From positions 1 through 43,046 of the forward strand of contig QKCT01000102.1 in assembly GCA_003245625.1 (NCBI GenBank): a stretch of 43,046 bases of DNA. The letters are read 5' to 3'. Below, piece by piece: positions 2,560-41,680 of the stretch; the first letter of the stretch is position 1, and each line of letters begins with the position of its first letter. The position numbers were made by a program, and so were the translations under genes. The notes under the pieces are model-generated. The model ran no database searches. It was not told where the DNA came from and saw nothing but the letters and a program-made list of their open reading frames with translations. The DNA comes from Bacillota bacterium. GTDB lineage: Bacteria; Bacillota_I; Bacilli_A; Izemoplasmatales; Hujiaoplasmataceae.

Positions 2560-2696
2560 CGCAATACTCACCTCTTTTCGCTACCATTATAGCATAATTT
2601 TTTTGGGAAAGTTTTTTTGGGTAAAAATTCTTTTAAAAACCCTTACAATATGGTATTATTTTTCATGTACGATACCCCAAAGATTTGGAGACAAGG

Positions 2697-4190
2697 ATGA
2701 CGGATAACAAACAGAAAAAAACACCTTTTTTCACGAAATTGAAACAATACGGACAAAAGAACGTCGCACCGTTTGATGTACCTGGTCATAAACTTGGCAA
2801 AGTTCCGAATGATTTATTACGCTACACTGGTCCTAAGATCTACGAACTCGACTCGAATTCGCCAATCGGACTAGATCACTTAAACAAACCAGTCGGTGTT
2901 ATCAAAGAAAGCGAAGCTTTGATGGCAGAAGCCTGCAACGCTGAAAAAGCGTATTTCATTACCAATGGTACCACCATCGGCATTTTGGCGATGATTATGA
3001 CTGTGTGCAAGGCAAAAGATAAAATCCTCTTACCAAGAAATGTTCATAAGTCAGTCATCAACGGATTGATTCTTTCTGGTGCTATCCCTGTATTTATGAA
3101 ACCAAATATCGATACCGACCTCGGTATCGCGAATGGTGTTTCGTTGGAAACCGTTCAGGAAGCAATCGAAGAAAACCCCGATGCAAAAGCTATCTTCGTC
3201 ATTAACCCTACGTACTTTGGAGTGATTTCTGATCTAAAGAAGATTGCGGAAATTGCACATCAAAATGATATGTCAGTTGTTGTGGATGAAGCCCATGGAG
3301 CACAGTTTTATTTCTCTGAAAAACTTCCATACAGTGCAATGGATGCCGGTTGTGATATTTCTGCTTTATCAATGCATAAAACAGCTGGTTCCTTTACTCA
3401 GTCTTCTGTTATCTTATGCCAAGGCGAACGCGTGGATCATCACCGCTTGCGTGCCAGCTTAAACATGTTGCAATCGACTAGTCCTTCTTCGCTTTTACTG
3501 GCGAGTTTGGATGTTGCGAGAAAAACGATGTATTTCCAAGGTGCTAAGAGAATCGAAAAAGTCTTACAGTTAGCGAAAGAGACAAGAGACAAACTAAACC
3601 AAATCCCAGGTATTCAAACCTTTGACAAAGATTATTTTATCAATCGAGGTTCCTTTGGATTTGATGAAACCAAATTGATTATCCGTGTTTCTGATTTAGG
3701 ATTATCCGGATTTGAAGTGTACCAAATGATGCGAAAAATCGCGAATGTTCAATTGGAACTAGCAGAGTCTCATATCGTATTGGCTGTTATTACGATTGGG
3801 ACAACCAAACAACACTTGGATAAACTTGTTTCTGGATTTAAAAAGTTATCAGAAAAATACTACAAACAACGGGATATGCTGGAGAAGATTGAATTCGAGT
3901 ACCAGTTCCCAGAACCATATACAAGACCTCGTGAAGCGTATCACGCTCCAAATAAGGTTGTAACACTTGATGACGCAATCGGTGAAATCGCCGCCGAACA
4001 AGTCATGATTTACCCACCGGGTATTCCGATTTTGATTCCTGGGGAAATCATTTCCGAATCCGTCATCAATGAAATCAAATTTTATATGCGGAAAGGTTCC
4101 GCATTACAAAGCGATCTCGACGATAATCATCTTCGAGTCGTCGATAAAGAAATCTGGATTAAATGGGAAGGTGACCTAGATGAGTTTTAA
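2697..4190 (+). CDS. speA: arginine decarboxylase (Orn/Lys/Arg decarboxylase family)
   Basis: A 497-residue cytosolic PLP enzyme of the fold-type I, speA/cad-like family found in Firmicutes. The N-terminal DVPGHKLG motif (27-34), DEAHGAQ at 197-203 and SMHKTAGS with the PLP lysine at residue 228 are all present. A smaller C-terminal domain starts near PEPYTRPREAY. The start is ATG at 2697, six bases after GGAG; an in-frame TTG at 2685 precedes the site. Sequence alone does not separate lysine from arginine specificity. The overlap with an agmatinase gene makes arginine-to-agmatine the best reading. Together the pair would give putrescine and urea. Confidence 0.85.
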   Translation: MTDNKQKKTPFFTKLKQYGQKNVAPFDVPGHKLGKVPNDLLRYTGPKIYELDSNSPIGLDHLNKPVGVIKESEALMAEACNAEKAYFITNGTTIGILAMIMTVCKAKDKILLPRNVHKSVINGLILSGAIPVFMKPNIDTDLGIANGVSLETVQEAIEENPDAKAIFVINPTYFGVISDLKKIAEIAHQNDMSVVVDEAHGAQFYFSEKLPYSAMDAGCDISALSMHKTAGSFTQSSVILCQGERVDHHRLRASLNMLQSTSPSSLLLASLDVARKTMYFQGAKRIEKVLQLAKETRDKLNQIPGIQTFDKDYFINRGSFGFDETKLIIRVSDLGLSGFEVYQMMRKIANVQLELAESHIVLAVITIGTTKQHLDKLVSGFKKLSEKYYKQRDMLEKIEFEYQFPEPYTRPREAYHAPNKVVTLDDAIGEIAAEQVMIYPPGIPILIPGEIISESVINEIKFYMRKGSALQSDLDDNHLRVVDKEIWIKWEGDLDEF

Positions 4191-28069: not shown

Positions 28070-29053
28070 TTATTTGTCACCCATGGTCATTGCCATTACT
28101 GCTTTCGCGGTATGAAGACGATTTTCTGCCTCTTGATATACAATGGAGTGTACTCCATCGATTACAGAGTCTTCCACTTCATTTCCACGGTCTGCAGGAA
28201 GTGCATGCATATATTTCACATTTGGTGCACCTAAGGCTATCATTTCTTCCGTGCATTTCCAACTCTTATAGGATTCTAACAAATCATCGACTACTGCATC
28301 GGATTGATTGTTCACCCAGGAACCCCAATTCTTTGGAATCACAACATCCGCTCCGCGAAATGCTTCTTCCATGTTATGTGTAATTTGAAATGTTCCCCCA
28401 CCGTCAAGTGCATTTTGTTTCGCTTGTTCGATCGCCCATTCCGGTAGATCGTATCCTTCTGGGTATGCAAGAGTGACATCCATTGCATATCGAGGGAATA
28501 AGAGGATTTGGGTTAAAGGAACAGAAATCGGTTTTTTATGGGAAGTAGCGTAAGCCCAAATAATAGAAACTTTAACGCGTTTGGTTTCTCCAAAGACTTC
28601 TTGAATCGTCATCAAGTCCGCTAATCCTTGCATTGGATGATACAGATCATCTTGAAGGCTCATAACAGGTACAGTGGAGTGTTCTGCCATTTCTCTTAGG
28701 TATTTGTTTCCAACACCCCAAAAACAATTTCTGCAGGCAATTCCGTGTCCATAGCTAGAAAGAATTGTAGCTGTATCTTTGGCGCTTTCCCCATGTGAAA
28801 TCTGCATTTTTGAAGTGTCTAGGAATGTTGCGTGCCCTCCGAGTTGGGCAAGTCCTGCTTCCATCGAATTTCTTGTTCTAGTACTTTGTTCGAAGAACAT
28901 TAGAAATGCTGTTTTGTTTTTTAAATATGTCGTGTCTTTGTTCGAGTAGAATTCATGTTTCAGTTGTTTTGATACATCGAGTAATGTATCGATTTCTGCT
29001 TTGGTCCATTCTTGAAGCGTGATGAAATGTTTTCCTTTGAATAATGGTTTCAT
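28070..29053 (-). CDS. ygeW: knotted carbamoyltransferase YgeW
   Basis: A 327-residue member of the aspartate/ornithine carbamoyltransferase superfamily. The carbamoyl-phosphate motif is STRTR (57-61, in FFEQSTRTRNS), and the late HALPADR replaces the HCLP of ornithine enzymes. The neighbours YgeY and the purine genes make YgeW the fitting subgroup. In the purine/ureido pathway it is thought to work in the phosphorolytic direction, giving carbamoyl phosphate from a ureido intermediate. The true substrate is not settled. A carbamate kinase that would turn this into ATP is not in the window. A good AGGAG site precedes the ATG. Confidence 0.85.
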   Translation of the reverse strand: MKPLFKGKHFITLQEWTKAEIDTLLDVSKQLKHEFYSNKDTTYLKNKTAFLMFFEQSTRTRNSMEAGLAQLGGHATFLDTSKMQISHGESAKDTATILSSYGHGIACRNCFWGVGNKYLREMAEHSTVPVMSLQDDLYHPMQGLADLMTIQEVFGETKRVKVSIIWAYATSHKKPISVPLTQILLFPRYAMDVTLAYPEGYDLPEWAIEQAKQNALDGGGTFQITHNMEEAFRGADVVIPKNWGSWVNNQSDAVVDDLLESYKSWKCTEEMIALGAPNVKYMHALPADRGNEVEDSVIDGVHSIVYQEAENRLHTAKAVMAMTMGDK

Positions 29054-29062
29054 ATTTGTCTC

Positions 29063-30271
29063 CTATTTGATTTTATTCATATATATCGAAGGTATTACTG
29101 CGTACATCGCACATGCCTTCACAAGATGATCTTTAAATGTTTTTTCGTTTGGAGCGTGAGCTTCTACTTCCGCTCCTGGACCAAATCCAATACATGGAAT
29201 TTGGTAGCGTCCCATGATGGAAACAGCATTGGTTGAGAAAGTCCACTTATCTACAATCGGTTGTTCTTGGAAAAGCTCTTTGTAGGCATCGACAGTCGAT
29301 TGGCATACAACATGGTCTTCCGGTAAAACCCAAGTAGGAAAATAGGATTTCGTTGGATAAACAAGTCCTGTATATGATGGTCTTGCATATTCATACATTT
29401 CCACTGTAGCACCAACTTTTTGAACAGAAGGTAAGTCTTTGATTTCTTGTAAAGCAGATAAGTATGTTTCTCCGTCCGTAAGACGTCTGTCGATGGAGAT
29501 AGAGCAACCATCTGCGACGGCACATCTCGATGGCGATGAATAAAAGACTTCACTCACCGTTAAGGATCCTTTTCCTAAAAAATCATTATCTAACAATCTG
29601 GTATGCAGTTCTTGAAGTTCTAGTAAGATTGGAGCCATTTTATAGATGGCGTTATCTCCACGTTCTGGTGCAGAACCGTGACAAGAAATACCGGTTGTCG
29701 ATACTTTGATTTCCATACGGCCGCGATGACCGCGATAGATACGACAAGAGGTTGGTTCGGTTATCACCACAAATTCAGGTTTCAACTTGTCTTCTTCAAT
29801 GATATATTGCCAACACAATCCATCACAGTCTTCTTCTTGAACCGTTCCAGTGATGAATAATGTATAATCATCTTCTAAGCCCAGTTCCTTAATGATTTTT
29901 CCGGCATACACCATAGAAGCCATACCACCTTCTTGGTCACTAGCTCCTCGACCGACGATGATTTCTTCATTTTCATATCCCAAATAAGGATCGTATTTCC
30001 AATTTTTGATTTCTCCGATTCCCACAGTGTCGATGTGTGCATCCATTGCGATCACATGCGCCCCATGACCAATTCTCCCAATGATATTTCCCATTGGATC
30101 GATGGTGATTTCATCAAAACCAACCGTTTCCATTTCTTGTTTGATTCTTAAGACAACATCTCTTTCTTCGCAACTTTCACTAGGAATCGCAATCATATCA
30201 CGAAGGAACTTTGTCATATCCGCTTTATATTCGTTGGCCTTTGCCAAAACGGTTTTAAAATCCACTTTCAT
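29063..30271 (-). CDS. ygeY: YgeY family M20 metallohydrolase
   Basis: A 402-residue dinuclear zinc hydrolase of the M20 peptidase family. Metal and catalytic residues are visible: His79 and Asp81 in MDAHIDTVG, Asp112 in [10 protein letters not shown], Glu146-147 in TVQEEDCDG, and a late His in VEAHAPNE. YgeY proteins occur with ygeW and ssnA and probably cleave an amide or ureido bond in a purine-derived intermediate such as a diaminopropionate derivative. The start is ATG at 30271; it lies two bases after the stop of the PLP gene, and its GAGGAA site is inside that gene. Confidence 0.85.
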
Positions 30272-30272
30272 A

Positions 30273-31631
30273 TTATTCCTCACGCATCTGTTGAATCAAG
30301 TTATCATAATGTTGAATCTTCTCATATTCTCCATTCCAGAAATCCATGGATTTCATCGAATCAAGATAATCCTTAGAATAACCAAATTTCAACCAATCTT
30401 TTTCTTTTTGATCGAATAGTTTTTGTTTTTGTTCTTTGGAACGATAATCTGCGATATCTTCTTCTCCAACTTTCAAGAAAACATCTTTGAACCAACGTCG
30501 CAAGACAAAGTCTTCGATTTCTAGATAACGATTTTCCATTTCTTGAATCACGGAATTGTATCGATCAAATCCATCTGTTGCGATGGTAACGACATTATCA
30601 TCTGGCCCTAAACGTAAGTATTTTGCCATTTTAATTGCACCTTGAATATTACAAATTGTAGAGACTCCAAACAAATCTTTCATCGCTACTGCCAATTCTT
30701 TTGGAACTCCTTGTTCAATCAAAATATCAGTGCCATCATGAATGACCTTTAATCCCTTTACACTGTCTTCATCCTTAATTAGTGTAATATAATCCGTATT
30801 CAGTACATTATGAATCAGGGTGCACATTTTATCTCCGATACCCTCGATCCGATGTTGTCCACGACCACCATTGGTCAATGTACTGCATTCATATGGTTCC
30901 AACGCTACGATTTTCGCTTCTGGGAACACGTGTTTGATTTGATCCCCTGCCGCAAGCGTACCTGCGGACCCTGGAGCAGAAACAAAGGCAGCAATTCGAC
31001 TATTTCCAATTCCTTCTACCGCTTCGATACAGGAATTCCCTGTGACGTGACGATGGAAGCGATAATTTGGTAGTAATTCAAATTGAGCCAAAGAACGATT
31101 TTTTGGATCTTCTTTTAGTTCAAATGTACGTTCCAACGTCAAAATAACATCGGATTCACTTCCTGGAGTTAAATCCAGTTTTGCTCCATATTTTTGAATG
31201 CGTTCATAGCGTTCTTTGCTCATATTATCTGGCATAATAACAATTGCATCGTATTTCATTAAATTACAGATATAGCTGACTCCGATCCCAAAGTTACCAG
31301 TGGATGGTCCTAGGATTGTATGTTCTCCCGGTAAAATAGTCTGGTCCACACATCCTTCGATTAAAGTGGAATACGCTGGTCCAACCTTATGGGACCCGGA
31401 TGGAAAATACGTTCCTAACAGTACGACGATATTACAATCGACTCCGGTTAGTTCTTTTGGTAGAACGATTTTATTGACTTGATTGTTTTCGTTCTTCCAA
31501 GTAATGTTGAACAAATTGATCGGATCTAACTCATCCGATTTTGCTTTCAAAGCTTTGGCTCTGATGTCTTTGGCGACCTTGTTGGGATGCAACATCTCTT
31601 CATAGGTTGGTCCAAATGGAATTTTACTCAT
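30273..31631 (-). CDS. fold-type II PLP enzyme in the ygeX position
   Basis: A 452-residue enzyme of the tryptophan synthase beta/cysteine synthase fold. The PLP lysine is Lys82 in [11 protein letters not shown], and the phosphate loop is [10 protein letters not shown] (108-117). A late [10 protein letters not shown] closes the PLP site. The GSHK motif is closer to TrpB-like proteins than to E. coli diaminopropionate ammonia-lyase (YgeX), yet the gene occupies the same place beside ygeY and ygeW. It probably performs an ammonia-eliminating step on a diamino or hydroxyamino acid. The start is ATG at 31631, nine bases after AAGGAG, overlapping the upstream gene by eight bases. Confidence 0.8.
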
Positions 31632-32880
31632 GATGTTTGTCTCCTTCATTGACTTTCATATACTCTATTAATTGTTGTAGATTAGGATCGAGTTCCACCC
31701 AATCTGAAATCGTCTTCATCGCTGATGCTTGATCTTTCAGACCATTTCCAGTCACGATAATTGTGACGGATTCTTCACTGCTAATTTTATCCTCTGCTCT
31801 TGCTTTGATAAACCCTGCAACGGAAGCAGCTGCAGCCGGTTCCGCAAATATGCCCTCTTCTTGTGCTAAAACTTTCATCGCAGATAAAATCTCTTCATCC
31901 GATACTTTGAGATACAATCCCGCAGACTTCTTCACTGCATCCATTCCTTTGATTGGATTTCTCGGAATTCCGACAGCGATACTGTCTGCGATTGTATTCT
32001 CTTCGGTTTCTTCCAAGTCTTTGTCTTCTAAGAAAGCATCCACGAATGGACTACATCCCTCACTTTGAATCCCCATAATTTTAGGAATATGTTGAATGAG
32101 TCCAACTTCATGCAAATCAAAGAAGCCTTTGTAAACACCGCCGATCGTGCAACCGTCTCCTACAGAAACAATAACCCAATCCGTTGGCTCAAAATGAAGT
32201 TGCTCAGCAATCTCTAAAGCAACTGTTTTTTTCCCTTCTACTAAGTGAGGATTGATTGCAGCATTTCGGTTGTACCAACCGTAGTGATCGATTGCGGCTT
32301 TACTGAGTTCAAATGTGGCTTTATAATCTCCTTTGACTTTGATTAGGTTTGCCCCATATATCTTTAATTGCAATAGTTTTCCTAGTGGTGCGCGTTGGGG
32401 AACAAAAATGACCGTCTCAAGACCGAGTTTCGCAGCGTTACCAGCTAAACTCGATGCGGCATTTCCTGTCGAAGAACAAGAAATCGTTTTTTTACCAAGT
32501 TCAAGTGCTTTGACACAGGCGATGACGCTTGCTCGATCTTTGAGTGACTGCGTCGGATTCAATCCGTCGTCTTTGATGTAAAGGTTTTTCGTTTGATATA
32601 ACTTACTTAGGTTTTCGCTATGATAAAGGGGTGTCCAGCCAACCTCTAAGGTATTCTTTGTATATGTTTCTTCCACGGAAAGAAAAGGTAGATAGCGCCA
32701 AATATTATAATTTTGATTGGCTTGAAAATAGGATTTATTGACAACTTGTCGAATTGCATCATAATCAAATTCGATGTCGAGTATCCCTTTTTCTCCACAT
32801 TCAGGACAGGTGAGAAGGTTGGGATCAGGCGACCAAGTTTTGTGACAAATCGTACAACGAAAATCTTTTATATAACTCAT
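31624..32880 (-). CDS. threonine synthase-like PLP enzyme with zinc ribbon
   Basis: A 418-residue fold-type II PLP enzyme. The N-terminal zinc ribbon has Cys9, Cys12, Cys25 and Cys28. NPTQSLKDRAS places the PLP lysine at 113, and SSTGNAASS (135-143) is the phosphate loop. The sequence is of the threonine synthase type. Threonine biosynthesis is unlikely to be its job, as no homoserine genes are nearby and it sits inside the purine operon overlapping ade by four bases (ATGA). It may share a substrate with the next PLP enzyme, for example as a second lyase. Function is inferred from context only. Confidence 0.78.
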   Translation of the reverse strand: MSYIKDFRCTICHKTWSPDPNLLTCPECGEKGILDIEFDYDAIRQVVNKSYFQANQNYNIWRYLPFLSVEETYTKNTLEVGWTPLYHSENLSKLYQTKNLYIKDDGLNPTQSLKDRASVIACVKALELGKKTISCSSTGNAASSLAGNAAKLGLETVIFVPQRAPLGKLLQLKIYGANLIKVKGDYKATFELSKAAIDHYGWYNRNAAINPHLVEGKKTVALEIAEQLHFEPTDWVIVSVGDGCTIGGVYKGFFDLHEVGLIQHIPKIMGIQSEGCSPFVDAFLEDKDLEETEENTIADSIAVGIPRNPIKGMDAVKKSAGLYLKVSDEEILSAMKVLAQEEGIFAEPAAAASVAGFIKARAEDKISSEESVTIIVTGNGLKDQASAMKTISDWVELDPNLQQLIEYMKVNEGDKHHE

Positions 32881-34595
32881 AAATCTTCACCTGCTTCGAG
32901 TGGGATAATCTTGAATTTGCGAACATCAAACAAACCTTTGTCAGTGCATTTTAAATCCGGTATCACAGGTAAGGAAAGAAATGCTAGAACTAAGAATGGA
33001 TCATCGATCTCGTTCTTTACTCCAAGCTCTCTTGCACGTTTCTCCAGTCGTTCTAATTTTTCACTGACAAATTCACCAGATTGATCCGTCATCAATCCAG
33101 CTACTTCCAGTTGGAGATAGTCAAACACCGCTCCGTTTTCCACCAGAACGATTCCTCCTTGAATTTCCTTGATGGTTTGAAGGGCAATCAAGATGTCGTT
33201 TTCATTATCTCCCACAACCACTACATTGTGAGAGTCGTGAGCTACGCTAAGAGCGATTGCAGCGTGTCGTAGTCCATAACCTGATAGCAACGCTTTTCCA
33301 ACGTTACCGGTGTAATGATGGCGTTCAACGACAAACAGTTTCAACAAGTCTCTTGCGTGTTCTAATTCCACATCACCGTTAATAAGAGTGACTTCTTCAA
33401 TGTGTCTTCTGGTTGTAACGTTATTCTTGACTAACTGAATGACATTCACAAATCCACTTTTCAATTGATATTGGAAGCTGAAATCCTCAAGATGAAAATG
33501 GACACTATCGTGTACTTCTTTGTTCTCTATCTTAACAGCTTCAAAGAGAGGTTTCTTGTCTTCTGCGACAAGTAACCCTTTTTTATATACTTTTTTAGGG
33601 ACAATATGATTCAAATCTTCAAATAAGACGAGGTCAGCAAAATATCCGGGAGCGATTGCTCCATGGTGTTTCAGTCCATAGCATTCAGCGATATTAATCG
33701 TTGCCATTTGGATTGCTGAAATCGGGTTTAATCCTTCTTTGATTGCAATATTGATATTATTGTTAATATGACCGACATGAATCATATCGGATGGATGAAG
33801 ATCATCGGAACAAAACAACAACCGACGGAGATAGTTTTCACTTACACCAGGCATCAAATCGATCACATTTTTGGTTTGCGACCCTTCTCTAAGATGAATA
33901 TACATACCGCGTTTCACCTTATCGACTAATTCTTCAGCGTTGGTACATTCATGGTCGGTTTTGACACCGGATAAAACATAAGCGTTCAAATCTTTTCCGA
34001 ATACGGTAGGTGCATGACCATCGATGAATAAGTCTTGATAGGCATCGAGTTTGTCATGAACTTCCTTGTCTCCTTGTATGACACCAGGATAGTTCATCAT
34101 TTCACCTAGTCCGATGACAGTGGGCAATCTCTTTAGTTCTTCTAACTCTTTTGGTCCAAGGATTGCTCCATTGGTTTCAAACGCTGTTGCTGGAACGCAA
34201 GATGGAATCATCATGAAGACATCAAGAGGTACTTTTGCAGCCGATTCAATCATATATTGAATTCCTGTCTTACCGCAAACATTTGCGATTTCATGGCTGT
34301 CTGCTATTACGGTAGTGGTACCATTTGGCATGACTAATTTCGCATATTCTCCCGGTGTGACCATCGAAGACTCAATATGGCAATGCCCATCCATAAAACC
34401 AGGACTAACAAAGAGCCCATGGCAATCGATTTCCTCTTTGCCGTGATAGGTTCCGGTTCCTAAGATAATTCCATTCGAGATTGCGATATCTTCTTCCTCA
34501 ATGGTTTTTGTAAAGACATTAACGATTTTGCAGTTTTTTAGTACAAGGTCTGCAGGGACTTCTCCTCTTGCTTGTTTGATGAGTTCCCGATTCAA
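32877..34595 (-). CDS. ade: adenine deaminase
   Basis: A 572-residue amidohydrolase that deaminates adenine to hypoxanthine. It has SPGFMDGHCHIESSMV (64-79), with the metal histidines, and ADSHEIANVCG (98-108). The usual family motif is DPHEIANV, so a Pro-to-Ser change is seen at residue 100. Its length and the C-terminal domain match Bacillus and E. coli adenine deaminases. The start is TTG at 34595, seven bases after AGGAG. It feeds the xanthine dehydrogenase encoded just upstream. Confidence 0.93.
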   Translation of the reverse strand: MNRELIKQARGEVPADLVLKNCKIVNVFTKTIEEEDIAISNGIILGTGTYHGKEEIDCHGLFVSPGFMDGHCHIESSMVTPGEYAKLVMPNGTTTVIADSHEIANVCGKTGIQYMIESAAKVPLDVFMMIPSCVPATAFETNGAILGPKELEELKRLPTVIGLGEMMNYPGVIQGDKEVHDKLDAYQDLFIDGHAPTVFGKDLNAYVLSGVKTDHECTNAEELVDKVKRGMYIHLREGSQTKNVIDLMPGVSENYLRRLLFCSDDLHPSDMIHVGHINNNINIAIKEGLNPISAIQMATINIAECYGLKHHGAIAPGYFADLVLFEDLNHIVPKKVYKKGLLVAEDKKPLFEAVKIENKEVHDSVHFHLEDFSFQYQLKSGFVNVIQLVKNNVTTRRHIEEVTLINGDVELEHARDLLKLFVVERHHYTGNVGKALLSGYGLRHAAIALSVAHDSHNVVVVGDNENDILIALQTIKEIQGGIVLVENGAVFDYLQLEVAGLMTDQSGEFVSEKLERLEKRARELGVKNEIDDPFLVLAFLSLPVIPDLKCTDKGLFDVRKFKIIPLEAGEDL

Positions 34596-34605
34596 ACTAT
34601 CACTC

Positions 34606-35445
34606 CTAGATTGTGTCTATAAATTGTCTTAATAAGTTCAAACTAACTTGTTTGCGGTATTCCTTATTGGAACGTTGATCGTCAATTGGACGAATATATT
34701 CTCGATATAAAGAGACAATATGCTCTTTATTTTGCTTTAGTTCTTGAACCGTTTTTGTAATGAATTGACATTCGATTTCAGGGTGTCGAACTACGGTGAT
34801 ATTGACGGAACCAAATGCAATCCGAAAATCCATAACCAAATTGTCTTGAATGGTAACAGCACCGGCAAAAGACAATTTACTGATAGCGTCACTTCTTCTA
34901 GGTCCAACTTTACGGAATGTTGCTTTTGTGAAATCGATTTTGTCTAGAATGATTTTGGTAATGATTTCGTTGGGTTCTAAAGCAATTTTACGCACTCCTG
35001 TGATGAACTCTTTGATGTCTACTCGACGTGTTCGATCTTTGGATTGAATTTCCAACATGGCATTCATCAAATATAACGGTACCAAAGAATCTCCGGCAGG
35101 AGATGCATTTGCGATATTTCCACCAAGAGTTCCAGCATGTCGAATCGCTGGAGAAGCCATTTCTAAAATCGTATCTTTTAATAATTTCGGGGTTGCGGGA
35201 TGTTCCAGTATGGATTCTAATGGTTCACAAGCTCCAATCGTGATGAATTCTTCCTCTTCTTGGATTCCTTGTAATTCACTCAGGTTTGCGATATACATGA
35301 CATCTTGTTTGAAGTTGATCGGTAAGGTTTTTAGATTGTGATGTTGAACCAACATATCTGTTCCACCAGCAACCAAACGATATGGATGATTTGCTAGTTC
35401 TGTTAAAGCGTCGGACAAACTTGTAGGGATGTATCCTTCTACCAT
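34606..35445 (-). CDS. xdhB: xanthine dehydrogenase FAD-binding subunit
   Basis: A 279-residue subunit of the CO dehydrogenase flavoprotein type. AGGTDM (26-31) and RHAGTLGGNIANASPAGD (102-119) bind FAD. It passes electrons from the iron-sulfur subunit to NAD or another acceptor. The ATG overlaps the iron-sulfur gene by seven bases. The length is normal for a separate FAD subunit. Naming follows the E. coli convention (A molybdenum, B FAD, C iron-sulfur). Confidence 0.93.
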   Translation of the reverse strand: MVEGYIPTSLSDALTELANHPYRLVAGGTDMLVQHHNLKTLPINFKQDVMYIANLSELQGIQEEEEFITIGACEPLESILEHPATPKLLKDTILEMASPAIRHAGTLGGNIANASPAGDSLVPLYLMNAMLEIQSKDRTRRVDIKEFITGVRKIALEPNEIITKIILDKIDFTKATFRKVGPRRSDAISKLSFAGAVTIQDNLVMDFRIAFGSVNITVVRHPEIECQFITKTVQELKQNKEHIVSLYREYIRPIDDQRSNKEYRKQVSLNLLRQFIDTI

Positions 35446-35912
35446 GTTCCATCACCATCCTTAACTGCGCGTTGAATTGCTTTGATTATCATGTTATATC
35501 CCGTACAACGGCATAAGTTACCAGATAAACCGATCTTAATCTCTTCCTCTGTTGGATTTGCATTTTTATTCAGTAAACTTTCAGATGCAATCATCATTCC
35601 AGGAGTACAGAAACCACATTGAACCGCTCCTTCTTCTTCAAATGCATTCCGTAATATATCATAGCGATGGGTTTGACTAAACCCCTCAATTGTAACGATC
35701 TCTTTATTTATAACATTGGCAATTGGAACGCTACAGGAATTGACAATTTCGTGATTCATGAGCACTGCACAGGCTCCACACTCACCTTCTCCACAACCTT
35801 CTTTGACTCCGGTTAACGAAAAGTCTTCGCGTAAAACGTCCAATAGTCTACGGTTTGGATTGGTGTCCAACTGCACTGGTTTTCCATTTAATTGAAATGT
35901 AATTTTAGCCAT
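35439..35912 (-). CDS. xdhC: xanthine dehydrogenase iron-sulfur subunit
   Basis: A 157-residue subunit with two 2Fe-2S clusters. Cluster one uses Cys40, Cys45, Cys48 and Cys60 (GCGEGECGAC); cluster two uses Cys99, Cys102, Cys134 and Cys136 (CGFCTPGM, GNLCRCTGY). It carries electrons between the molybdenum and FAD subunits. It overlaps both neighbours by seven or eight bases, which suggests balanced synthesis of the three subunits. Confidence 0.95.
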   Translation of the reverse strand: MAKITFQLNGKPVQLDTNPNRRLLDVLREDFSLTGVKEGCGEGECGACAVLMNHEIVNSCSVPIANVINKEIVTIEGFSQTHRYDILRNAFEEEGAVQCGFCTPGMMIASESLLNKNANPTEEEIKIGLSGNLCRCTGYNMIIKAIQRAVKDGDGTW

Positions 35913-37992
35913 GATTTACCAACTCCATTAAGTATTCCGGTGTTGCCGGAATCTTCATGATTCTTTTCTTTATCGCTTGTTCTATCGCTTTGGTAACCGC
36001 CGGTGCCCCTCCGACTAATGTCAGCTCGCCGACGCCTTTTGCCCCATAAGGACCAAATGCATATGGGTTTTCGTATAGGACCGTTTCCATCGGTCCCAAA
36101 TCCATTGCGGTTGGGATGATGTAATCTGTCATATTTTTTTGTTTCAACACACCATTTTCATGGCGCATCACTTCCAAGTACCCATAAGCGATTCCTTGTG
36201 CCAAACCACCGTCTGCTTGACCTAAAACAATTCGCTCATCAATTGCTTTTCCTACATCGTAAACCGACCACGATCCGAGCACTTTGGTAATATAGGTAAC
36301 CGGATCAACATCGACTTCTACGATGTTGATTCCCCAAGAATAAGCTGGATAAGCATCGCCTTGGAAAGTTGCTTCATCGTACTTAATATAAGAAGGTTGT
36401 TCATATTGTTTTTGAACCGTGAATTCGATTTCTTGGAAACGTTCTTTCATCTCTTTGGCTGCTCTAGCAACCAAACCACCAACTATCATCATTGTTCTTG
36501 AAGCAACTGTCGGTCCGGAATCCGGTACGAAATCCGTATCAGGAAAATCAAAAATAATTCGCTCTAAAGGTAATTCTATGATTTCTGCCACGACTTTTCG
36601 CAGGGTGGTACGAATTCCTTGTCCCATATCCACAGCCGCAACCAAAATATGGACGAAACCATCTTTGGTTTTACGTAACTTCACTTTCGCTTTGATATGA
36701 TTGGCTTCTCCTGAACCTGTGAATCCACAACCATGAAAGAACCAACTCATACCAATTCCTTTGTGGGAGGAAGGGTCTTGATACTCTTTATACTTGGTTT
36801 GATAATCAGAGATCTCCATTGCTTTTTCAATCATCTCTTCCATAATAATCGGATCACGGAAGGTACCATTTGTTGAAGTTTTATCCCCTTGTTTCGCTAA
36901 ATGTCTTTTTCTAAAAGTGAGTGGATCAATCCCTAAATCTTTAGCAATATGCTCCATAAACATCTCAACTGCGAAATACATTTGAGGTGCCCCAAATCCA
37001 CGAAACGCTCCATTTGGAACGGTATTGGTTAAATAGACATCTCCGCTAACGTCGAGATGTGGAATCGTGTATGCTCCTGTGCATGCAATTAAAGATCGGG
37101 ATAAAACAACACCGGATAAGCCAATATTCGCACCTGCATCAATACCGACATGTGTTTGAAATCCAAGAATCTGGTTGGTTTTATCAACTGCTGCTTCAAA
37201 ATGAATTTTGGATGGATGGCGCTTTGTGGTGACAAGCATATCTTCTTCTCGATCATACATCATCGATATCGGTTGTTTGATTTTTTGAATGGCAACCGCT
37301 AATTGACAAGCCATCAAAGAAGGGAATTCTTCTTTTCCACCAAAAGCCCCACCAATCGATGGTTGAATGACACGCACTTGATTTTCTTCAACCCCCAAGG
37401 CTTGAATAACAGCGTTTTTCACATAATATGGACATTGTATTGAACCAATTAATGTTACTTTATCATCATCGAGATAGCCGATAAATCCTTGTGGTTCGAT
37501 ATAGGCTTGCTCTTGATATCCGGTTTCATAATCGTAAGAAATGATCTTCTTAGCATGACGGAAAACGCGATTTCCGTCTCCTTTTTCAAAGTGATAGTGA
37601 ATCGCAGAGTTTACCCAATCAAATACTGGTTTTGTTTCTTCATATTCGATTTTTACTTGATCAACCAATTCTTTCACTTTTGCTTTATCTGGTCCTACAA
37701 TCAAAAGAATTGGTTCATGTAAATAGGTTACTTTGTCTGTTGGAAAAATCGGTTGGTCATCAAAGATAATCTTCACAACATTTTTCCCTGAAACATCGTC
37801 AGCACCTACGCTGTAATAGCCATCCGGTAATTCCGGCAGAACGATATTCTTAATCAAACCAGCTGGAATGGAACTTCGCACGGTCAAAGCGTGATGCATA
37901 TGATCTAACTTGATATCGTCAACATACAGTGCTTTTCCTGAAATCTTTTCAGCTGCATCAGTTTTGCGAACAGATTTGCTAATGTCTGACAT
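35905..37992 (-). CDS. xdhA: xanthine dehydrogenase molybdenum-binding subunit
   Basis: A 695-residue catalytic subunit of the xanthine dehydrogenase family, somewhat shorter than typical molybdenum subunits of about 750-770. Motifs include EQAYIEPQGF (161-170), GGAFGGKEEF (214-223), NGAFRGFGAPQ, DMGQGIRTTL, and a C-terminal GVGELTLVGG whose Glu fits the catalytic base. The GYQEQAYIEP pattern is close to that of the E. coli XdhD type found in ssnA-type clusters. No in-frame TGA is present, so no selenocysteine; a labile selenium ligand cannot be judged. The start is ATG at 37992 behind AAAGGAGG; the frame upstream of it overlaps the preA end and is rejected. Confidence 0.92.
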   Translation of the reverse strand: MSDISKSVRKTDAAEKISGKALYVDDIKLDHMHHALTVRSSIPAGLIKNIVLPELPDGYYSVGADDVSGKNVVKIIFDDQPIFPTDKVTYLHEPILLIVGPDKAKVKELVDQVKIEYEETKPVFDWVNSAIHYHFEKGDGNRVFRHAKKIISYDYETGYQEQAYIEPQGFIGYLDDDKVTLIGSIQCPYYVKNAVIQALGVEENQVRVIQPSIGGAFGGKEEFPSLMACQLAVAIQKIKQPISMMYDREEDMLVTTKRHPSKIHFEAAVDKTNQILGFQTHVGIDAGANIGLSGVVLSRSLIACTGAYTIPHLDVSGDVYLTNTVPNGAFRGFGAPQMYFAVEMFMEHIAKDLGIDPLTFRKRHLAKQGDKTSTNGTFRDPIIMEEMIEKAMEISDYQTKYKEYQDPSSHKGIGMSWFFHGCGFTGSGEANHIKAKVKLRKTKDGFVHILVAAVDMGQGIRTTLRKVVAEIIELPLERIIFDFPDTDFVPDSGPTVASRTMMIVGGLVARAAKEMKERFQEIEFTVQKQYEQPSYIKYDEATFQGDAYPAYSWGINIVEVDVDPVTYITKVLGSWSVYDVGKAIDERIVLGQADGGLAQGIAYGYLEVMRHENGVLKQKNMTDYIIPTAMDLGPMETVLYENPYAFGPYGAKGVGELTLVGGAPAVTKAIEQAIKKRIMKIPATPEYLMELVNHG

Positions 37993-38003
37993 GAAATCCT
38001 CCT

Positions 38004-39080
38004 TTACTGAAAACGAATTGCTTTGGTTGGACATTTTGCGATACAAAGTCCACACTCAAAGCATTTTTCCGAATCAAAAGTGATTCTATCTTTCCATTCG
38101 ATAGCGAAATATGGACAAATACGCTCGCATAAGCGACATTTCGTACATTTTTCTTCGATTAAAATTGGTGTGCTTTGTTTGTATACGACACTCTTAGTCA
38201 ATCCGGATTGAATCACTTCCTCGATACTCGCAAAGCCATGTTTCTCCAATGCCTTTGGAAGATCATCAATGATCTTCGAATACAGATTTTTGCCTCGTAA
38301 CAAAGCTGCAGATAACATTTGTACTGCGCTTGCACCTGCGAGCAAGAATTCCAAAACATCATCGGCAGTTGCGATACCACCAACGCCAATGACGGTTAAG
38401 TCTGGCTCGGCTTGCTTAATCTTATATACCGTAGCCAAAGCAATCGGTTTGATCGCTGGTCCGCTCGTCCAAACGAAGCCTTTGTCGTTTCCATAGATAA
38501 TGGAACGATTATCGATATCAATTTTCATCGTTGGACCTAAAGAATTGATGGCTACTACCCCATTTGCTCCTGCTTCTTTAATTGCTTTAGCAAAGCCTTC
38601 TGGGTTTGGAATATGAGGACTAATCTTCATATAAATCGGTTTTGTTGTATTTCTTCGAATCGCTCGAACTGTTTCTTGAATATCGGATAAATTCGTTCCC
38701 ACATAATGGGTCGAGATCTCGAAGGCATCCGCATAGGGATCGACTTTTGGAACTAGAAATTCCATATCATCTTTCGAATACCCCAAAGAAACAATGAGTG
38801 GACGATCCTTTGTTTTATGAAAAGATGGTAAAAAATCATTCAACCATGTTTCATAGGAATGTTCACTCCAAAGTTCCGAGTTCATGATAAATTGATTGTC
38901 ACCATAGATACACGGTTTTGGGATATTAGGTAACGCGACGGAAATGGTTTTCGTAACAATTCCACCACACCCTTCCGAAACTAAAAACTGCAATTTCTCC
39001 AAATCGCCATTTAATGGGCCAGCGGCTGGCATCAATGGATTGGCAAATTCCATCCCATCAAATTGTGTCTTTAAATTCAA
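38004..39080 (-). CDS. preA: PreA-like flavoprotein with two 4Fe-4S clusters
   Basis: A 358-residue protein. Residues 1-305 form a dihydroorotate dehydrogenase-like FMN barrel (FANPLMPAAGPLNG near the start, and VIGVGGIATADDVLEFLLAGA). Residues 309-358 hold two ferredoxin-type clusters: Cys312, 315, 318, 322 and Cys340, 343, 346, 350. This is the layout of PreA, the catalytic half of bacterial dihydropyrimidine dehydrogenase, but its partner preT is absent. In E. coli-type purine clusters the related slot holds YgfK. A role in reducing an oxidised purine ring is a fair inference. The start is TTG at 39080 after AAGGGATG and overlaps ssnA by 23 bases. Confidence 0.85.
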   Translation of the reverse strand: MNLKTQFDGMEFANPLMPAAGPLNGDLEKLQFLVSEGCGGIVTKTISVALPNIPKPCIYGDNQFIMNSELWSEHSYETWLNDFLPSFHKTKDRPLIVSLGYSKDDMEFLVPKVDPYADAFEISTHYVGTNLSDIQETVRAIRRNTTKPIYMKISPHIPNPEGFAKAIKEAGANGVVAINSLGPTMKIDIDNRSIIYGNDKGFVWTSGPAIKPIALATVYKIKQAEPDLTVIGVGGIATADDVLEFLLAGASAVQMLSAALLRGKNLYSKIIDDLPKALEKHGFASIEEVIQSGLTKSVVYKQSTPILIEEKCTKCRLCERICPYFAIEWKDRITFDSEKCFECGLCIAKCPTKAIRFQ

Positions 39081-40383
39081 AGTTCATCCCTTCTTTCTCT
39101 ATCTTATCCCAGCATTTCTGTGCTAGTTTTTTTGCATTTTCTTGTTTTTCTAACCAAGCATGATCGACTGTAAAGTCTTTTACTTTGGCGATTCCGTTGA
39201 TAAATACATTCTTTGGCTTTAGGTTAGGGAACAAACCAAAGAATACATGTCCAAAGATATTTCCCTCGTGAATCGGAGTGAATTCCTGATAAGGAACGGT
39301 AATAAAATCACTGACATACCCGGTAGATAATTTTCCCAGTTTAATGTGAAGAATGTCTCCGGCATATTCGAATGATGTGAGAATTGACTTTCTTATTGCA
39401 TCTAACCCAAGAGCGGTCGCATTTTCCTCACGATGATGGGCTGTGTAGTAGGCATTCAGATACTCTACTGGCATGGATGACAGTAGTCCATCGTTCCCAA
39501 TAAACCACGGTATTCCTTTTGCTTCTATCGATGCTAAAGGCGGTAACCCCACCGCATTATTCAAATTGGATGTTGTATTCACAACAATCTTGGATTTTGT
39601 CTTTTGAATGATGGACAATTCCAACTCGTTCACATTGGTACAATGCACCAACAGACTCTTCTCATTTAACAATTCAAACCGATTAAGACGTTCAATCACA
39701 GATTCATTGAAATGATTGTTTGTCCATTCTTCGTCGTACTTGCTTTCTGCCACATGAATGTGAATCCCGCTTTGACCAAGTTGTTGCTTTACTTTTAGAA
39801 GCGTTTCTTCGCTTAATGTAAAGGAAGCATGAAGACCAAATAACCCTGCTACAAAAGGCCCTCGGTATTTCTTGATAAAGTCACTGTTTTCTTGAATCGT
39901 TTCATCTACTTGAAAGCGATCGCTTGTTTCAAATGCAAGAATTGCTCGTTGACCGATTCCATCAACTACTGCAGCCTTAATCCTCTCCAATGAGCCTTTG
40001 ATTTGACCGCTTGCGTGGTGATCAATTAGGGTAGTACTTCCGGCCATAAGTTGATCTAGTGCAAAGGAAAACGCAGAAGCTTCAACCATATCCAATTCCA
40101 AGAAGTGGTCGAGTTTCCACCACAGTTGTTCTAATATATCTTGGAAAGTTTTGGGATTGTATGGAACAGATAAACCTCTTGCAAAGGCAGAGTATAAATG
40201 TGTATGTCCCGCAACAAATCCAGGTAACACGATTTGTCCTGAAACGTCGAACACTTCGTCTGCTTTTGTGATATCAAAGAACTCCATCGACCCGGTTTCT
40301 AGTATCGTTTCATCAAACAGAATGTATTGATTTTCCTTATAGGTGCGATAGTCATATGTTCTCGCATTGATCAATGCTTTCAA
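39058..40383 (-). CDS. ssnA: SsnA-type amidohydrolase
   Basis: A 441-residue amidohydrolase of the metallo-dependent family. GFVAGHTHLYSAFARG (about 55-70) carries the metal histidines. HIHVAESKYDEEW, LLVHCTN and a late FIGNDGLLSS supply further ligands. The GHTHLYSAFARG form is characteristic of SsnA, found in purine-degradation clusters, where it is thought to deaminate or open a purine-derived ring. The start is TTG at 40383, eight bases after GAGG; a GTG at 40392 touches that site. It lies between the hydantoinase and preA. Confidence 0.85.
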   Translation of the reverse strand: MKALINARTYDYRTYKENQYILFDETILETGSMEFFDITKADEVFDVSGQIVLPGFVAGHTHLYSAFARGLSVPYNPKTFQDILEQLWWKLDHFLELDMVEASAFSFALDQLMAGSTTLIDHHASGQIKGSLERIKAAVVDGIGQRAILAFETSDRFQVDETIQENSDFIKKYRGPFVAGLFGLHASFTLSEETLLKVKQQLGQSGIHIHVAESKYDEEWTNNHFNESVIERLNRFELLNEKSLLVHCTNVNELELSIIQKTKSKIVVNTTSNLNNAVGLPPLASIEAKGIPWFIGNDGLLSSMPVEYLNAYYTAHHREENATALGLDAIRKSILTSFEYAGDILHIKLGKLSTGYVSDFITVPYQEFTPIHEGNIFGHVFFGLFPNLKPKNVFINGIAKVKDFTVDHAWLEKQENAKKLAQKCWDKIEKEGMNFEFKDTI

Positions 40384-40393
40384 TCGATTCACC

Positions 40394-41680
40394 TCAAATC
40401 TTTTTGCCTAGTTGATAATTAAAAGTCATATTTCGTACTAGGAATTTTCCCCGATGCATCGTATGGACAACACGTCCTTTTCTCATGCATCCTTTATATA
40501 CGCTATAATCCGTGAATCCGTGGAAATCATCAATGATGTTTTCCATCAAATCATATACAAATAAGTTTGCTAATTTCCCTGGTTCTAAAGATCCACGATC
40601 TTCTAGGTTGTAGAGGGAACAGAGATTACTGGACATTTTTTCGATTATTTTTTTCTCAAAGAGTCGGTACATGATATCGAAGGAATATTCAATTCCTCCA
40701 ATACCGAGTGGAATATCTTTTAATAAGTAATGGTTTTTATCATCTATAAAGAAAGCACAATGGTCCGTTCCTATCGCAAAAATGTCATGGAAATGCTCTC
40801 TCAATTTACACATTTCTTCTTTGCTGCGAAGAGGTGGAGCCAAGGTATACAAGAATCCATCTTCTTTTTGCACTTCGTCTGAAGTGAATACAAAATAATG
40901 AGGGCAACTTTCTAAAAAGAAACGTTTGTTTAAAATATCAGAATAATCTGCCTTTAATTTCTCAATGGTATACCCGGATGATACATGGACCATATATAAA
41001 TATCCGCCATGCTCCCGAACAAATCCAGCCAGTTTAAGAGCTTCTTTTGTTTCTGCAATATTCGGTCTGGAACGATTTAAGTCCCGGAAGGTAAATTCAT
41101 CATTTGTAGTGATTAAATCATCATCTTCGATATGCGCCAAAAGCAGGAACTTGTATTTTTCTGAAAGTTCCAATAATTGGATGATGGCATCATCATCGGT
41201 TCTTCTTCCGGAGTCGGAATACGTCGTAAATAATTTTAGGGATTGAATTCCCAGTTCTTGCATTTTTAAAACAAATTCTTCCAGATTACACTTTGGATTC
41301 TTGATGGTTGCGTGGAAGAAATAATCAACACAGGAATTCTTTGCTTCTTCCATGCGTTTTCGATAAGCGGACTCTAGATCGTTTGGATTATCAACTGGAT
41401 CTAAAAAATCAATGATTGTTGTTACTCCTCCAAAAGCAGCTTGAATCGAACCAGATAAAAAATCATCACGAGAATGAATCTTTCCTAAATCAAGATTGAA
41501 ATGGACATGTGGATCGATCAACGCAGGCAGAATCAAAGAATCAGAAGCATTTAGGGTTTCCTTCGCTTCTAGGATTTCAGACGAAATATCTTTAATTCGT
41601 TCTCCTTCAATATAAACATGTTTTTTTTGGAATGTGCCGTTTTGATAAACGAGTCCATTCATGATCCGTATGTCAAACAT
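40394..41680 (-). CDS. hydantoinase / dihydropyrimidinase-type amidohydrolase
   Basis: A 428-residue cyclic amidohydrolase. Visible are IDPHVHF (55-61), the probable carbamylated Lys149 in SLKLFTTY, LAHIEDDD (181-188), HVSSGY, and GTDHCAFF. It would hydrolyse a ring amide such as an imidazolone- or hydantoin-like intermediate. E. coli has the comparable HyuA/YgeZ in its purine cluster. True D-hydantoinase substrates cannot be inferred. It starts with ATG at 41680 after GGTGAT, four bases from the upstream stop. Confidence 0.85.
   Translation of the reverse strand: MFDIRIMNGLVYQNGTFQKKHVYIEGERIKDISSEILEAKETLNASDSLILPALIDPHVHFNLDLGKIHSRDDFLSGSIQAAFGGVTTIIDFLDPVDNPNDLESAYRKRMEEAKNSCVDYFFHATIKNPKCNLEEFVLKMQELGIQSLKLFTTYSDSGRRTDDDAIIQLLELSEKYKFLLLAHIEDDDLITTNDEFTFRDLNRSRPNIAETKEALKLAGFVREHGGYLYMVHVSSGYTIEKLKADYSDILNKRFFLESCPHYFVFTSDEVQKEDGFLYTLAPPLRSKEEMCKLREHFHDIFAIGTDHCAFFIDDKNHYLLKDIPLGIGGIEYSFDIMYRLFEKKIIEKMSSNLCSLYNLEDRGSLEPGKLANLFVYDLMENIIDDFHGFTDYSVYKGCMRKGRVVHTMHRGKFLVRNMTFNYQLGKKI

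What the first reader, a model, noticed from the sequence alone, without database searches (positions are those of the whole stretch)
30273..32880. Two different fold-type II PLP enzymes where other clusters have one YgeX
The genes overlap by eight bases and lie directly before ygeY and ygeW. One is threonine synthase-like with a zinc ribbon (Lys113); the other is TrpB/cysteine synthase-like with a GSHK lysine (Lys82). Known clusters use a single diaminopropionate ammonia-lyase. The pair could split the ammonia-elimination step, form a hetero-oligomer, or act on a different intermediate.
Basis: partly seen in the sequence, partly recalled or inferred. Interest (0 to 1): 0.75.

Follow-up and report, generated by a model that had tools for sequence, protein, structure and literature searches.

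The report
Two-enzyme ending of purine breakdown
Many oxygen-shunning bacteria appear to finish breaking down DNA bases and uric acid with a conserved pair of unstudied vitamin-B6 enzymes instead of the single known enzyme YgeX, and one of the pair probably releases the last three carbons as the amino acid serine rather than as pyruvate.

Summary
Window 30273-32880 (-) encodes two intact, different fold-type II PLP enzymes. PLP2 is ThrC-like with a Zn ribbon; PLP1 is CysK-like with GSHK. They overlap by 8 bases and lie between ade/xdh and ygeY/ygeW in a reductive purine/urate cluster. The host genome has no ygeX, and it has separate CysK, ThrC and OrtB genes.

The pair is a conserved module, not a local oddity. 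PLP2-PLP1 are adjacent in 71 of 72 loci holding both. Of 80 YgeY-bearing clostridial genomes, 66 carry both and 5 only one. Most lack YgeX. Each is its own clade, outside ThrC, CysK and YgeX.

Lead to PLP1's chemistry: all 137 PLP1-family proteins have Asp in GIGDK, aligned with Asp232 of Fn1055, a CysK relative that turns cysteine into L-serine; only 1 of 30 true CysKs has Asp there. PLP1 also lies directly before L-serine dehydratase genes in several operons and near SHMT. I propose that PLP1 makes L-serine from 2,3-diaminopropionate. PLP2's reaction is unresolved (racemase or lyase).

A hetero-oligomer is disfavoured: PLP1 and PLP2 divergence is uncorrelated. All functions are inferred; nothing was assayed. 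Verdict: a real, apparently undescribed variant ending of a known pathway.

The parts
31624..32880 (-). PLP2: ThrC-like fold-type II PLP enzyme, 418 aa, Zn ribbon Cys9/12/25/28, Schiff-base Lys114
   Evidence: own 100%-supported clade
30273..31631 (-). PLP1: CysK-like fold-type II PLP enzyme, 452 aa from the Shine-Dalgarno-supported ATG (ORF open to 31649, 458 aa), GSHK lysine, long C-terminal extension
   Evidence: own 100%-supported clade
31386..31388 (-). Codon of PLP1 catalytic lysine (Lys88 of the 458-aa ORF, Lys82 from the likely start)
   Evidence: invariant in alignment A3; aligned with CysK Lys
30831..30833 (-). Codon of PLP1 Asp273 (GIGDK), aligned with Fn1055 Asp232
   Evidence: GIGDK in 137/137 PLP1-family proteins
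32539..32541 (-). Codon of PLP2 Schiff-base Lys114 (SLKDR)
   Evidence: invariant in alignment A2
29063..30271 (-). YgeY: M20-family hydrolase of the urate pathway
   Evidence: TIGR03526 691 bits over cut-off 321; start read
28070..29053 (-). OTC-like carbamoyltransferase in the ygeW position (327 aa; below both the YgeW and OTC curated cut-offs)
   Evidence: conserved position in related loci
32877..34595 (-). Adenine deaminase
   Evidence: TIGR01178 612 bits over cut-off 472.5
34606..38055 (-). Xanthine-dehydrogenase-type subunits (FAD, 2Fe-2S, Mo)
   Evidence: all below equivalog cut-offs
38004..39080 (-). UacX/PydA-like flavin reductase with ferredoxin domain
   Evidence: dihydroorotate dehydrogenase / PreA models
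39058..40392 (-). SsnA-like aminohydrolase
   Evidence: NF005540 326 bits, cut-off 444
40394..41680 (-). D-hydantoinase-like amidohydrolase in the HyuA role
   Evidence: TIGR02033 193 bits, cut-off 393

Best explanation
PLP2 and PLP1 are the terminal module of a variant reductive purine/urate pathway. HyuA-, YgeW- and YgeY-type enzymes bring the ring-opened product to 2,3-diaminopropionate (DAP), and the two PLP enzymes take DAP onward in place of, or beside, YgeX. The mechanism I commit to: PLP1 binds L-DAP on its GSHK lysine, eliminates the beta-ammonia to the aminoacrylate, and then, unlike CysK, uses the GIGD aspartate to activate water, giving L-serine plus NH3. L-serine goes on to pyruvate (Fe-S serine dehydratase) or to glycine plus a C1 unit (SHMT). 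PLP2, a ThrC-type enzyme without ThrC's NPxR arginine, acts one step before or beside PLP1; my first choice is D-DAP to L-DAP inversion, because HyuA is D-selective and PLP1, by homology, needs the L isomer. Shown here: the module, its conservation, its pathway context, usual lack of YgeX, clade identity, the conserved Asp. Inferred: action on DAP, serine as product, PLP2's reaction.
For: Conserved order PLP2-PLP1-YgeY-YgeW in purine clusters (71 of 72 adjacent). Co-occurrence 66 both / 3 / 2 / 9 neither in 80 YgeY genomes. YgeX absent in 47 of 53 PLP1-family genomes. GIGDK in 137/137 PLP1-family proteins against 1/30 true CysKs with Asp, aligned with Fn1055 Asp232; Fn1055 makes L-serine from L-cysteine and water with Asp232 a key residue (PMC12940168; PMC9865163); the PDB holds the D232N mutant with aminoacrylate. 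L-serine dehydratase genes directly after PLP1 or PLP1' in L048, L130, L208, L233, L241 and SHMT beside the pair in several loci. PLP2 lacks ThrC's Arg. Genes annotated cysteine synthase and threonine synthase are induced with the xanthine dehydrogenase cluster in Izemoplasma zrk13 (PMC8397711).
Against: No activity was measured. The window's genome and some near-complete relatives show no Fe-S serine dehydratase and no obvious PLP-type one, so serine would have to leave by SHMT there. The Sda/SHMT association is not significant against YgeX (9/60 and 8/49 against 0/15), and four of the five PLP1-Sda loci look like one ancestral arrangement. Racemase activity has no precedent in the ThrC branch that I know of. 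PLP1 with YgeX and without PLP2 (L056, L065, L119) needs an extra assumption.
Confidence: 0.42

Rival explanations
1. PLP2 is the functional YgeX analogue (DAP ammonia-lyase giving pyruvate), and PLP1 does a side reaction on DAP, such as making serine for biosynthesis or handling the other enantiomer. The two act in parallel.
For: Loci with PLP1 plus YgeX and no PLP2 (L056, L065, L119) make PLP2 and YgeX look interchangeable. Several relatives lack other serine deaminases, so a direct route to pyruvate would be useful.
Against: The tight co-occurrence (66 both, 5 single) is not expected of parallel, dispensable routes; 13 genomes keep PLP2 together with YgeX.
Confidence: 0.22
2. Sequential route: PLP1 turns DAP into L-serine and PLP2 deaminates L-serine to pyruvate, so the pair does in two steps what YgeX does in one.
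For: ThrC fold is close to serine/threonine dehydratases and serine racemases. The window genome and several relatives lack Fe-S serine dehydratase. Explains strict co-occurrence.
Against: Genomes with an L-serine dehydratase gene next to PLP1 still keep PLP2 (L048, L130, L233; L208 with L209; L241 with L242).
Confidence: 0.15
3. PLP1 and PLP2 form one hetero-oligomeric enzyme, each active only in the complex.
For: Overlapping genes, 71 of 72 adjacent, strict co-occurrence.
Against: PLP1 and PLP2 identities uncorrelated over 351 pairs (rho 0.06); PLP2s 72-79% identical pair with PLP1s 35-37% identical; genes unlinked in some genomes; PLP1 without PLP2 in L056, L065 and L119.
Confidence: 0.08
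4. One or both act on an earlier intermediate (albizziin, 3-amino-2-ureidopropionate or diureidopropionate), for example beta-elimination of a ureido group.
For: PLP2 is often directly before HyuA; in L120-L123 no ygeW lies near ygeY-PLP2-PLP1-hyuA.
Against: Most loci keep both YgeY and YgeW (71 and 68 of 80 loci), which already remove both ureido groups.
Confidence: 0.08
5. Ordinary housekeeping threonine synthase and cysteine synthase that happen to sit in the cluster.
For: PLP2 scores over TIGR00260's cut-off; nearest folds are ThrC and CysK-type.
Against: Separate ThrC and CysK in the same genome; separate clades; PLP1 scores 132 bits against a 351-bit CysK cut-off; ThrC's Arg missing in every PLP2 that could be scored; purine context throughout.
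Confidence: 0.03

Closest known systems
Reductive uric acid degradation pathway (E. coli, C. difficile; PMC12507026)
   Same: XDH-type subunits, UacX-type reductase, SsnA-like, hydantoinase-like, ygeW-position carbamoyltransferase and YgeY in one cluster
   Different: No YgeX; a ThrC-like and a CysK-like PLP enzyme stand in its place. The paper scored 'YgeX' by the broad family PF00291, which would count these two as YgeX
YgeX, diaminopropionate ammonia-lyase (TIGR03528 / TIGR01747)
   Same: Fold-type II PLP enzyme at the same place in the cluster
   Different: Separate clade; PLP1 best 28.8 bits to a DAP-lyase model with cut-off 276; no Asp before GN
Fn1055, cysteine hydroxyl-lyase of Fusobacterium nucleatum
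   Same: CysK fold, Asp at the GIG/GIS-D position that CysK lacks
   Different: Different clade and substrate context; PLP1 is about 120 aa longer, with Lys after the Asp and invariant His280-Asn281
Threonine synthase (TIGR00260)
   Same: PLP2 fold, Zn ribbon as in PRK08197-type members, SLKDR lysine, over the model's cut-off
   Different: NPxR arginine is Leu/Met, NAGN loop is DGC(T/S); extra to a real ThrC in the genome
OrtB, 2-amino-4-oxopentanoate thiolase subunit (NF040741)
   Same: Fold-type II catabolic enzyme of anaerobes, similar length
   Different: The genome has its own OrtB (L003, 601 bits, cut-off 550); PLP1 does not match the model

Membership tests
Reductive purine/urate degradation cluster | YgeY with SsnA, XDH-type enzyme, UacX or YgfK, hydantoinase and carbamoyltransferase together | tested here: met
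   SsnA-, HyuA- and YgeW-type genes score below equivalog cut-offs, so their roles rest partly on context
YgeX (diaminopropionate ammonia-lyase) | Match to TIGR01747/TIGR03528 over cut-off | tested here: not met
   PLP1 far below; PLP2 not in the 25 listed; no match in G000
YgeX (diaminopropionate ammonia-lyase) | DAP to pyruvate activity | not testable with these tools
   needs assay
Threonine synthase (PLP2) | TIGR00260 over curated cut-off | tested here: met
   231 bits, cut-off 167
Threonine synthase (PLP2) | Conserved Arg of NPxRxEGQKT (present in the three genuine short ThrCs compared) | tested here: not met
   Leu or Met wherever the motif could be scored
Threonine synthase (PLP2) | Tree position inside genuine ThrC | tested here: not met
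   own 100%-supported clade beside short ThrC
Cysteine synthase CysK/CysM (PLP1) | Curated CysK/CysM score | tested here: not met
   132 bits against 351
Cysteine synthase CysK/CysM (PLP1) | GIGA(G) loop | tested here: not met
   GIGDK in 137/137
Cysteine hydroxyl-lyase, Fn1055 type (PLP1 works like) | Asp at position 232 (Fn1055 numbering) | tested here: met
Cysteine hydroxyl-lyase, Fn1055 type (PLP1 works like) | beta-replacement by water giving L-serine | not testable with these tools
   needs assay
OrtB thiolase (PLP1) | NF040741 match | tested here: not met
   not among PLP1's 24 matches

The most novel reading that the evidence does not exclude
Anaerobic purine degradation has a second, unrecognised ending: a new enzyme (PLP1) replaces the beta-amino group of 2,3-diaminopropionate by water to give L-serine, after a ThrC-fold enzyme (PLP2) has inverted or otherwise prepared the D-configured intermediate; in YgeY-bearing Clostridia this pair is commoner than YgeX.
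Probability: 0.28. Interest if true: 0.75.

Novelty: new variant of a known kind. Interest (0 to 1): 0.6.

Why it matters
The reductive urate pathway was worked out only in 2025, and its late steps (stereochemistry, order of ureido cleavage) are open (PMC12990295). If the pair replaces YgeX, surveys that count PF00291 as YgeX mis-assign the last step in most of the YgeY-bearing clostridial genomes sampled here. If the product is serine, purine carbon enters glycine and C1 metabolism directly, which would suit the acetogens and DNA-degrading Izemoplasma-type bacteria that carry it. Two proteins usually annotated threonine synthase and cysteine synthase would get a new, directly testable function.

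Tried and rejected
PLP1 as OrtB: no NF040741 match, and a separate OrtB exists. Pair as housekeeping ThrC/CysK: separate copies and separate clades. The Acetoanaerobium and Fusobacterium hits first looked like OrtB; they are CysK-type, and the Fusobacterium one (L091) fits Fn1055 in length and in Asp232. Strict YgeX replacement: rejected because 14 YgeX genomes also carry a PLP1-family gene. Sda/SHMT neighbours of PLP1/PLP2 against YgeX (9/60, 8/49, 0/15): too few for significance. Papers on ThrC Arg160 and on YgeX Asp120/Lys77 were not in the library, so those residue roles are recalled, not cited; the Fn1055 structure paper was also not held. Residue-based assignment of PLP2's chemistry gave nothing decisive.

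Full report
Observation. The two genes are real and intact. PLP2 (31624-32880, minus) has a four-cysteine Zn ribbon and Lys114; PLP1 (30273-31631, minus, from an ATG with a strong Shine-Dalgarno) overlaps it by 8 bases and carries GSHK. Ade, PLP2, PLP1 and YgeY look translationally coupled. The rest of the cluster is the reductive purine/urate set: XDH-type subunits, a UacX-type reductase, an SsnA-like and a D-hydantoinase-like enzyme, YgeY and an OTC-like enzyme in the ygeW position. The pathway was characterised with E. coli and C. difficile enzymes and ends with YgeX turning 2,3-diaminopropionate (DAP) into pyruvate (PMC12507026). The window's genome has no YgeX match and has separate CysK, OrtB and E. 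coli-type ThrC.

Conservation. One scan of named genome contigs gave 80 loci with a PLP1 73-89% identical over nearly its full length, mostly in the order PLP2-PLP1-YgeY-YgeW with purine genes around; of 72 loci with both genes, 71 have them adjacent on one strand. In 80 YgeY-bearing genomes drawn from the phylum of Clostridium rhizosphaerae, the PLP1 family is in 69, PLP2 in 68, both in 66, neither in 9, and 7 of those 9 have YgeX. YgeX is in 21 of 80. The Fisher value for co-occurrence (5e-8) ignores relatedness. PLP1 comes in three subfamilies by identity to the window's: PLP1 (62-89%), PLP1' (35-41%) and PLP1'' (44-47%). Some loci have PLP1 or PLP1' with YgeX and no PLP2 (L056, L065, L119); others have all three.

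Families. A 50-row tree puts PLP1 (18 rows) and PLP2 (11 rows) each in a 100%-supported clade, PLP1 as sister to CysK/CysM and PLP2 beside short ThrC, neither with YgeX; the deep branches are weak. AF2 models are confident (mean pLDDT 90.9 for PLP2 and 92.6 for PLP1), and the nearest solved folds are threonine synthase and beta-cyanoalanine synthase/CysK. PLP2 lacks the Arg of the ThrC motif NPxRxEGQKT in every family member where the motif could be scored; that this Arg holds the substrate phosphate in ThrC is recalled, not tested.

Chemistry of PLP1. Every one of 137 PLP1-family proteins, down to about 35% identity, has Asp-Lys after GIG; true CysKs have Ala (1 of 30 has Asp). The Asp aligns with residue 232 of the Fusobacterium protein L091, whose length and numbering match Fn1055. 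Fn1055 converts L-cysteine and water to L-serine and H2S, with Asp232 among its key residues (PMC12940168; PMC9865163); the PDB holds its D232N mutant with aminoacrylate. So PLP1 plausibly hydrates the aminoacrylate to serine instead of letting it go to pyruvate.

Operon evidence. L-serine dehydratase beta and alpha genes (curated models matched over cut-off in L130, L208 and L241) follow PLP1 directly in L048, L130 and L233 and PLP1' in L208 and L241. In L048, L233, L208 and L241 the surroundings look alike (gatB, PLP1 or PLP1', sdaAB, sdaAA, molybdenum-cofactor-type genes), as if PLP1 and PLP1' had replaced each other in place, which argues for one function but means these four are not independent. 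SHMT lies next to PLP2 or PLP1 in several loci, and L130 is a single run PLP2-SHMT-PLP1-SdaAB-SdaAA-x-YgeY-YgeW. HyuA directly follows PLP2 in many others. RidA, which removes aminoacrylate, sits between YgeX and PLP1 in L157. In cultured Izemoplasma zrk13 (genome size 1,958,905 bp, the length of the G098 contig), 'cysteine synthase' and 'threonine synthase' are induced with xanthine dehydrogenase and guanine and adenine deaminases as one gene cluster (PMC8397711). G098 also holds a second, Fn1055-like CysK relative about 8 kb from PLP1, so which gene 'cysteine synthase' means is not certain.

Complex or not. PLP1 and PLP2 identities are uncorrelated over 351 pairs of genomes (rho 0.06): PLP2s 72-79% identical pair with PLP1s only 35-37% identical, and the genes are unlinked in some genomes. 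This favours coupling through a metabolite over a hetero-oligomer.

Weak points. The window's genome and several near-complete relatives show no Fe-S serine dehydratase and no obvious PLP-type one (not every PALP protein there was identified), so serine would have to leave by SHMT there, or PLP2 is itself a deaminase. The Sda/SHMT association (9/60 PLP1, 8/49 PLP2, 0/15 YgeX) is suggestive only. That HyuA is D-stereospecific and YgeX equally active on D- and L-DAP is stated in PMC12507026; that YgeX uses Lys77 for L and Asp120 for D is recalled. The three YgeX proteins compared have Asp before GN, PLP1 and PLP2 have Thr, which is why a separate inverting enzyme is attractive for PLP2, but it is not shown.

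Verdict. A real, widespread and, as far as the searched literature shows, undescribed variant of the last step of reductive purine degradation. The strongest new lead is PLP1 as a diaminopropionate hydroxyl-lyase making L-serine.

Noticed in passing
L222:9104-10489, L234:8755-10167, L240:4684-6069: PLP1 relatives 62-66% identical lie beside fumarate-reductase-type flavoproteins and small 2Fe-2S-type proteins, with no purine genes nearby; they probably act on another substrate.
   Followed up: no
L088 and L089 (Bosea and Rhizobium plasmids): PLP1' homologues 34-35% identical to the window's; in Bosea with RidA, a YgeX homologue split over two ORFs and an M20 hydrolase, in Rhizobium with an M20 peptidase and amino-acid transporter. 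Perhaps for plant diaminopropionate-type amino acids.
   Followed up: partly
window 28070-29053: The carbamoyltransferase in the ygeW position is 327 aa and scores below both the YgeW (181 of 500 bits) and OTC (252 of 281) cut-offs, while E. coli-like YgeW fills the same slot in other loci (L119, L158).
   Followed up: partly
L003 and L006 (window genome, contigs C14 and C98): The same genome carries OrtB, with its C-terminal part on a second contig end followed by what looks like the ornithine aminomutase genes, so an ornithine fermentation route seems present.
   Followed up: partly
L317:1420-2529: In G098 (apparently Izemoplasma zrk13) a CysK relative with GIGDG, similar to Fn1055, lies about 8 kb from the PLP1 gene.
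   Followed up: partly
L048, L208, L233, L241: PLP1 and the 35%-identical PLP1' occupy the same slot between a regulator gene and sdaAB-sdaAA near gatB, a likely in-place replacement.
   Followed up: partly
window 2685-4190: ORF weakly like ornithine, lysine and arginine decarboxylases, far below their cut-offs.
   Followed up: no
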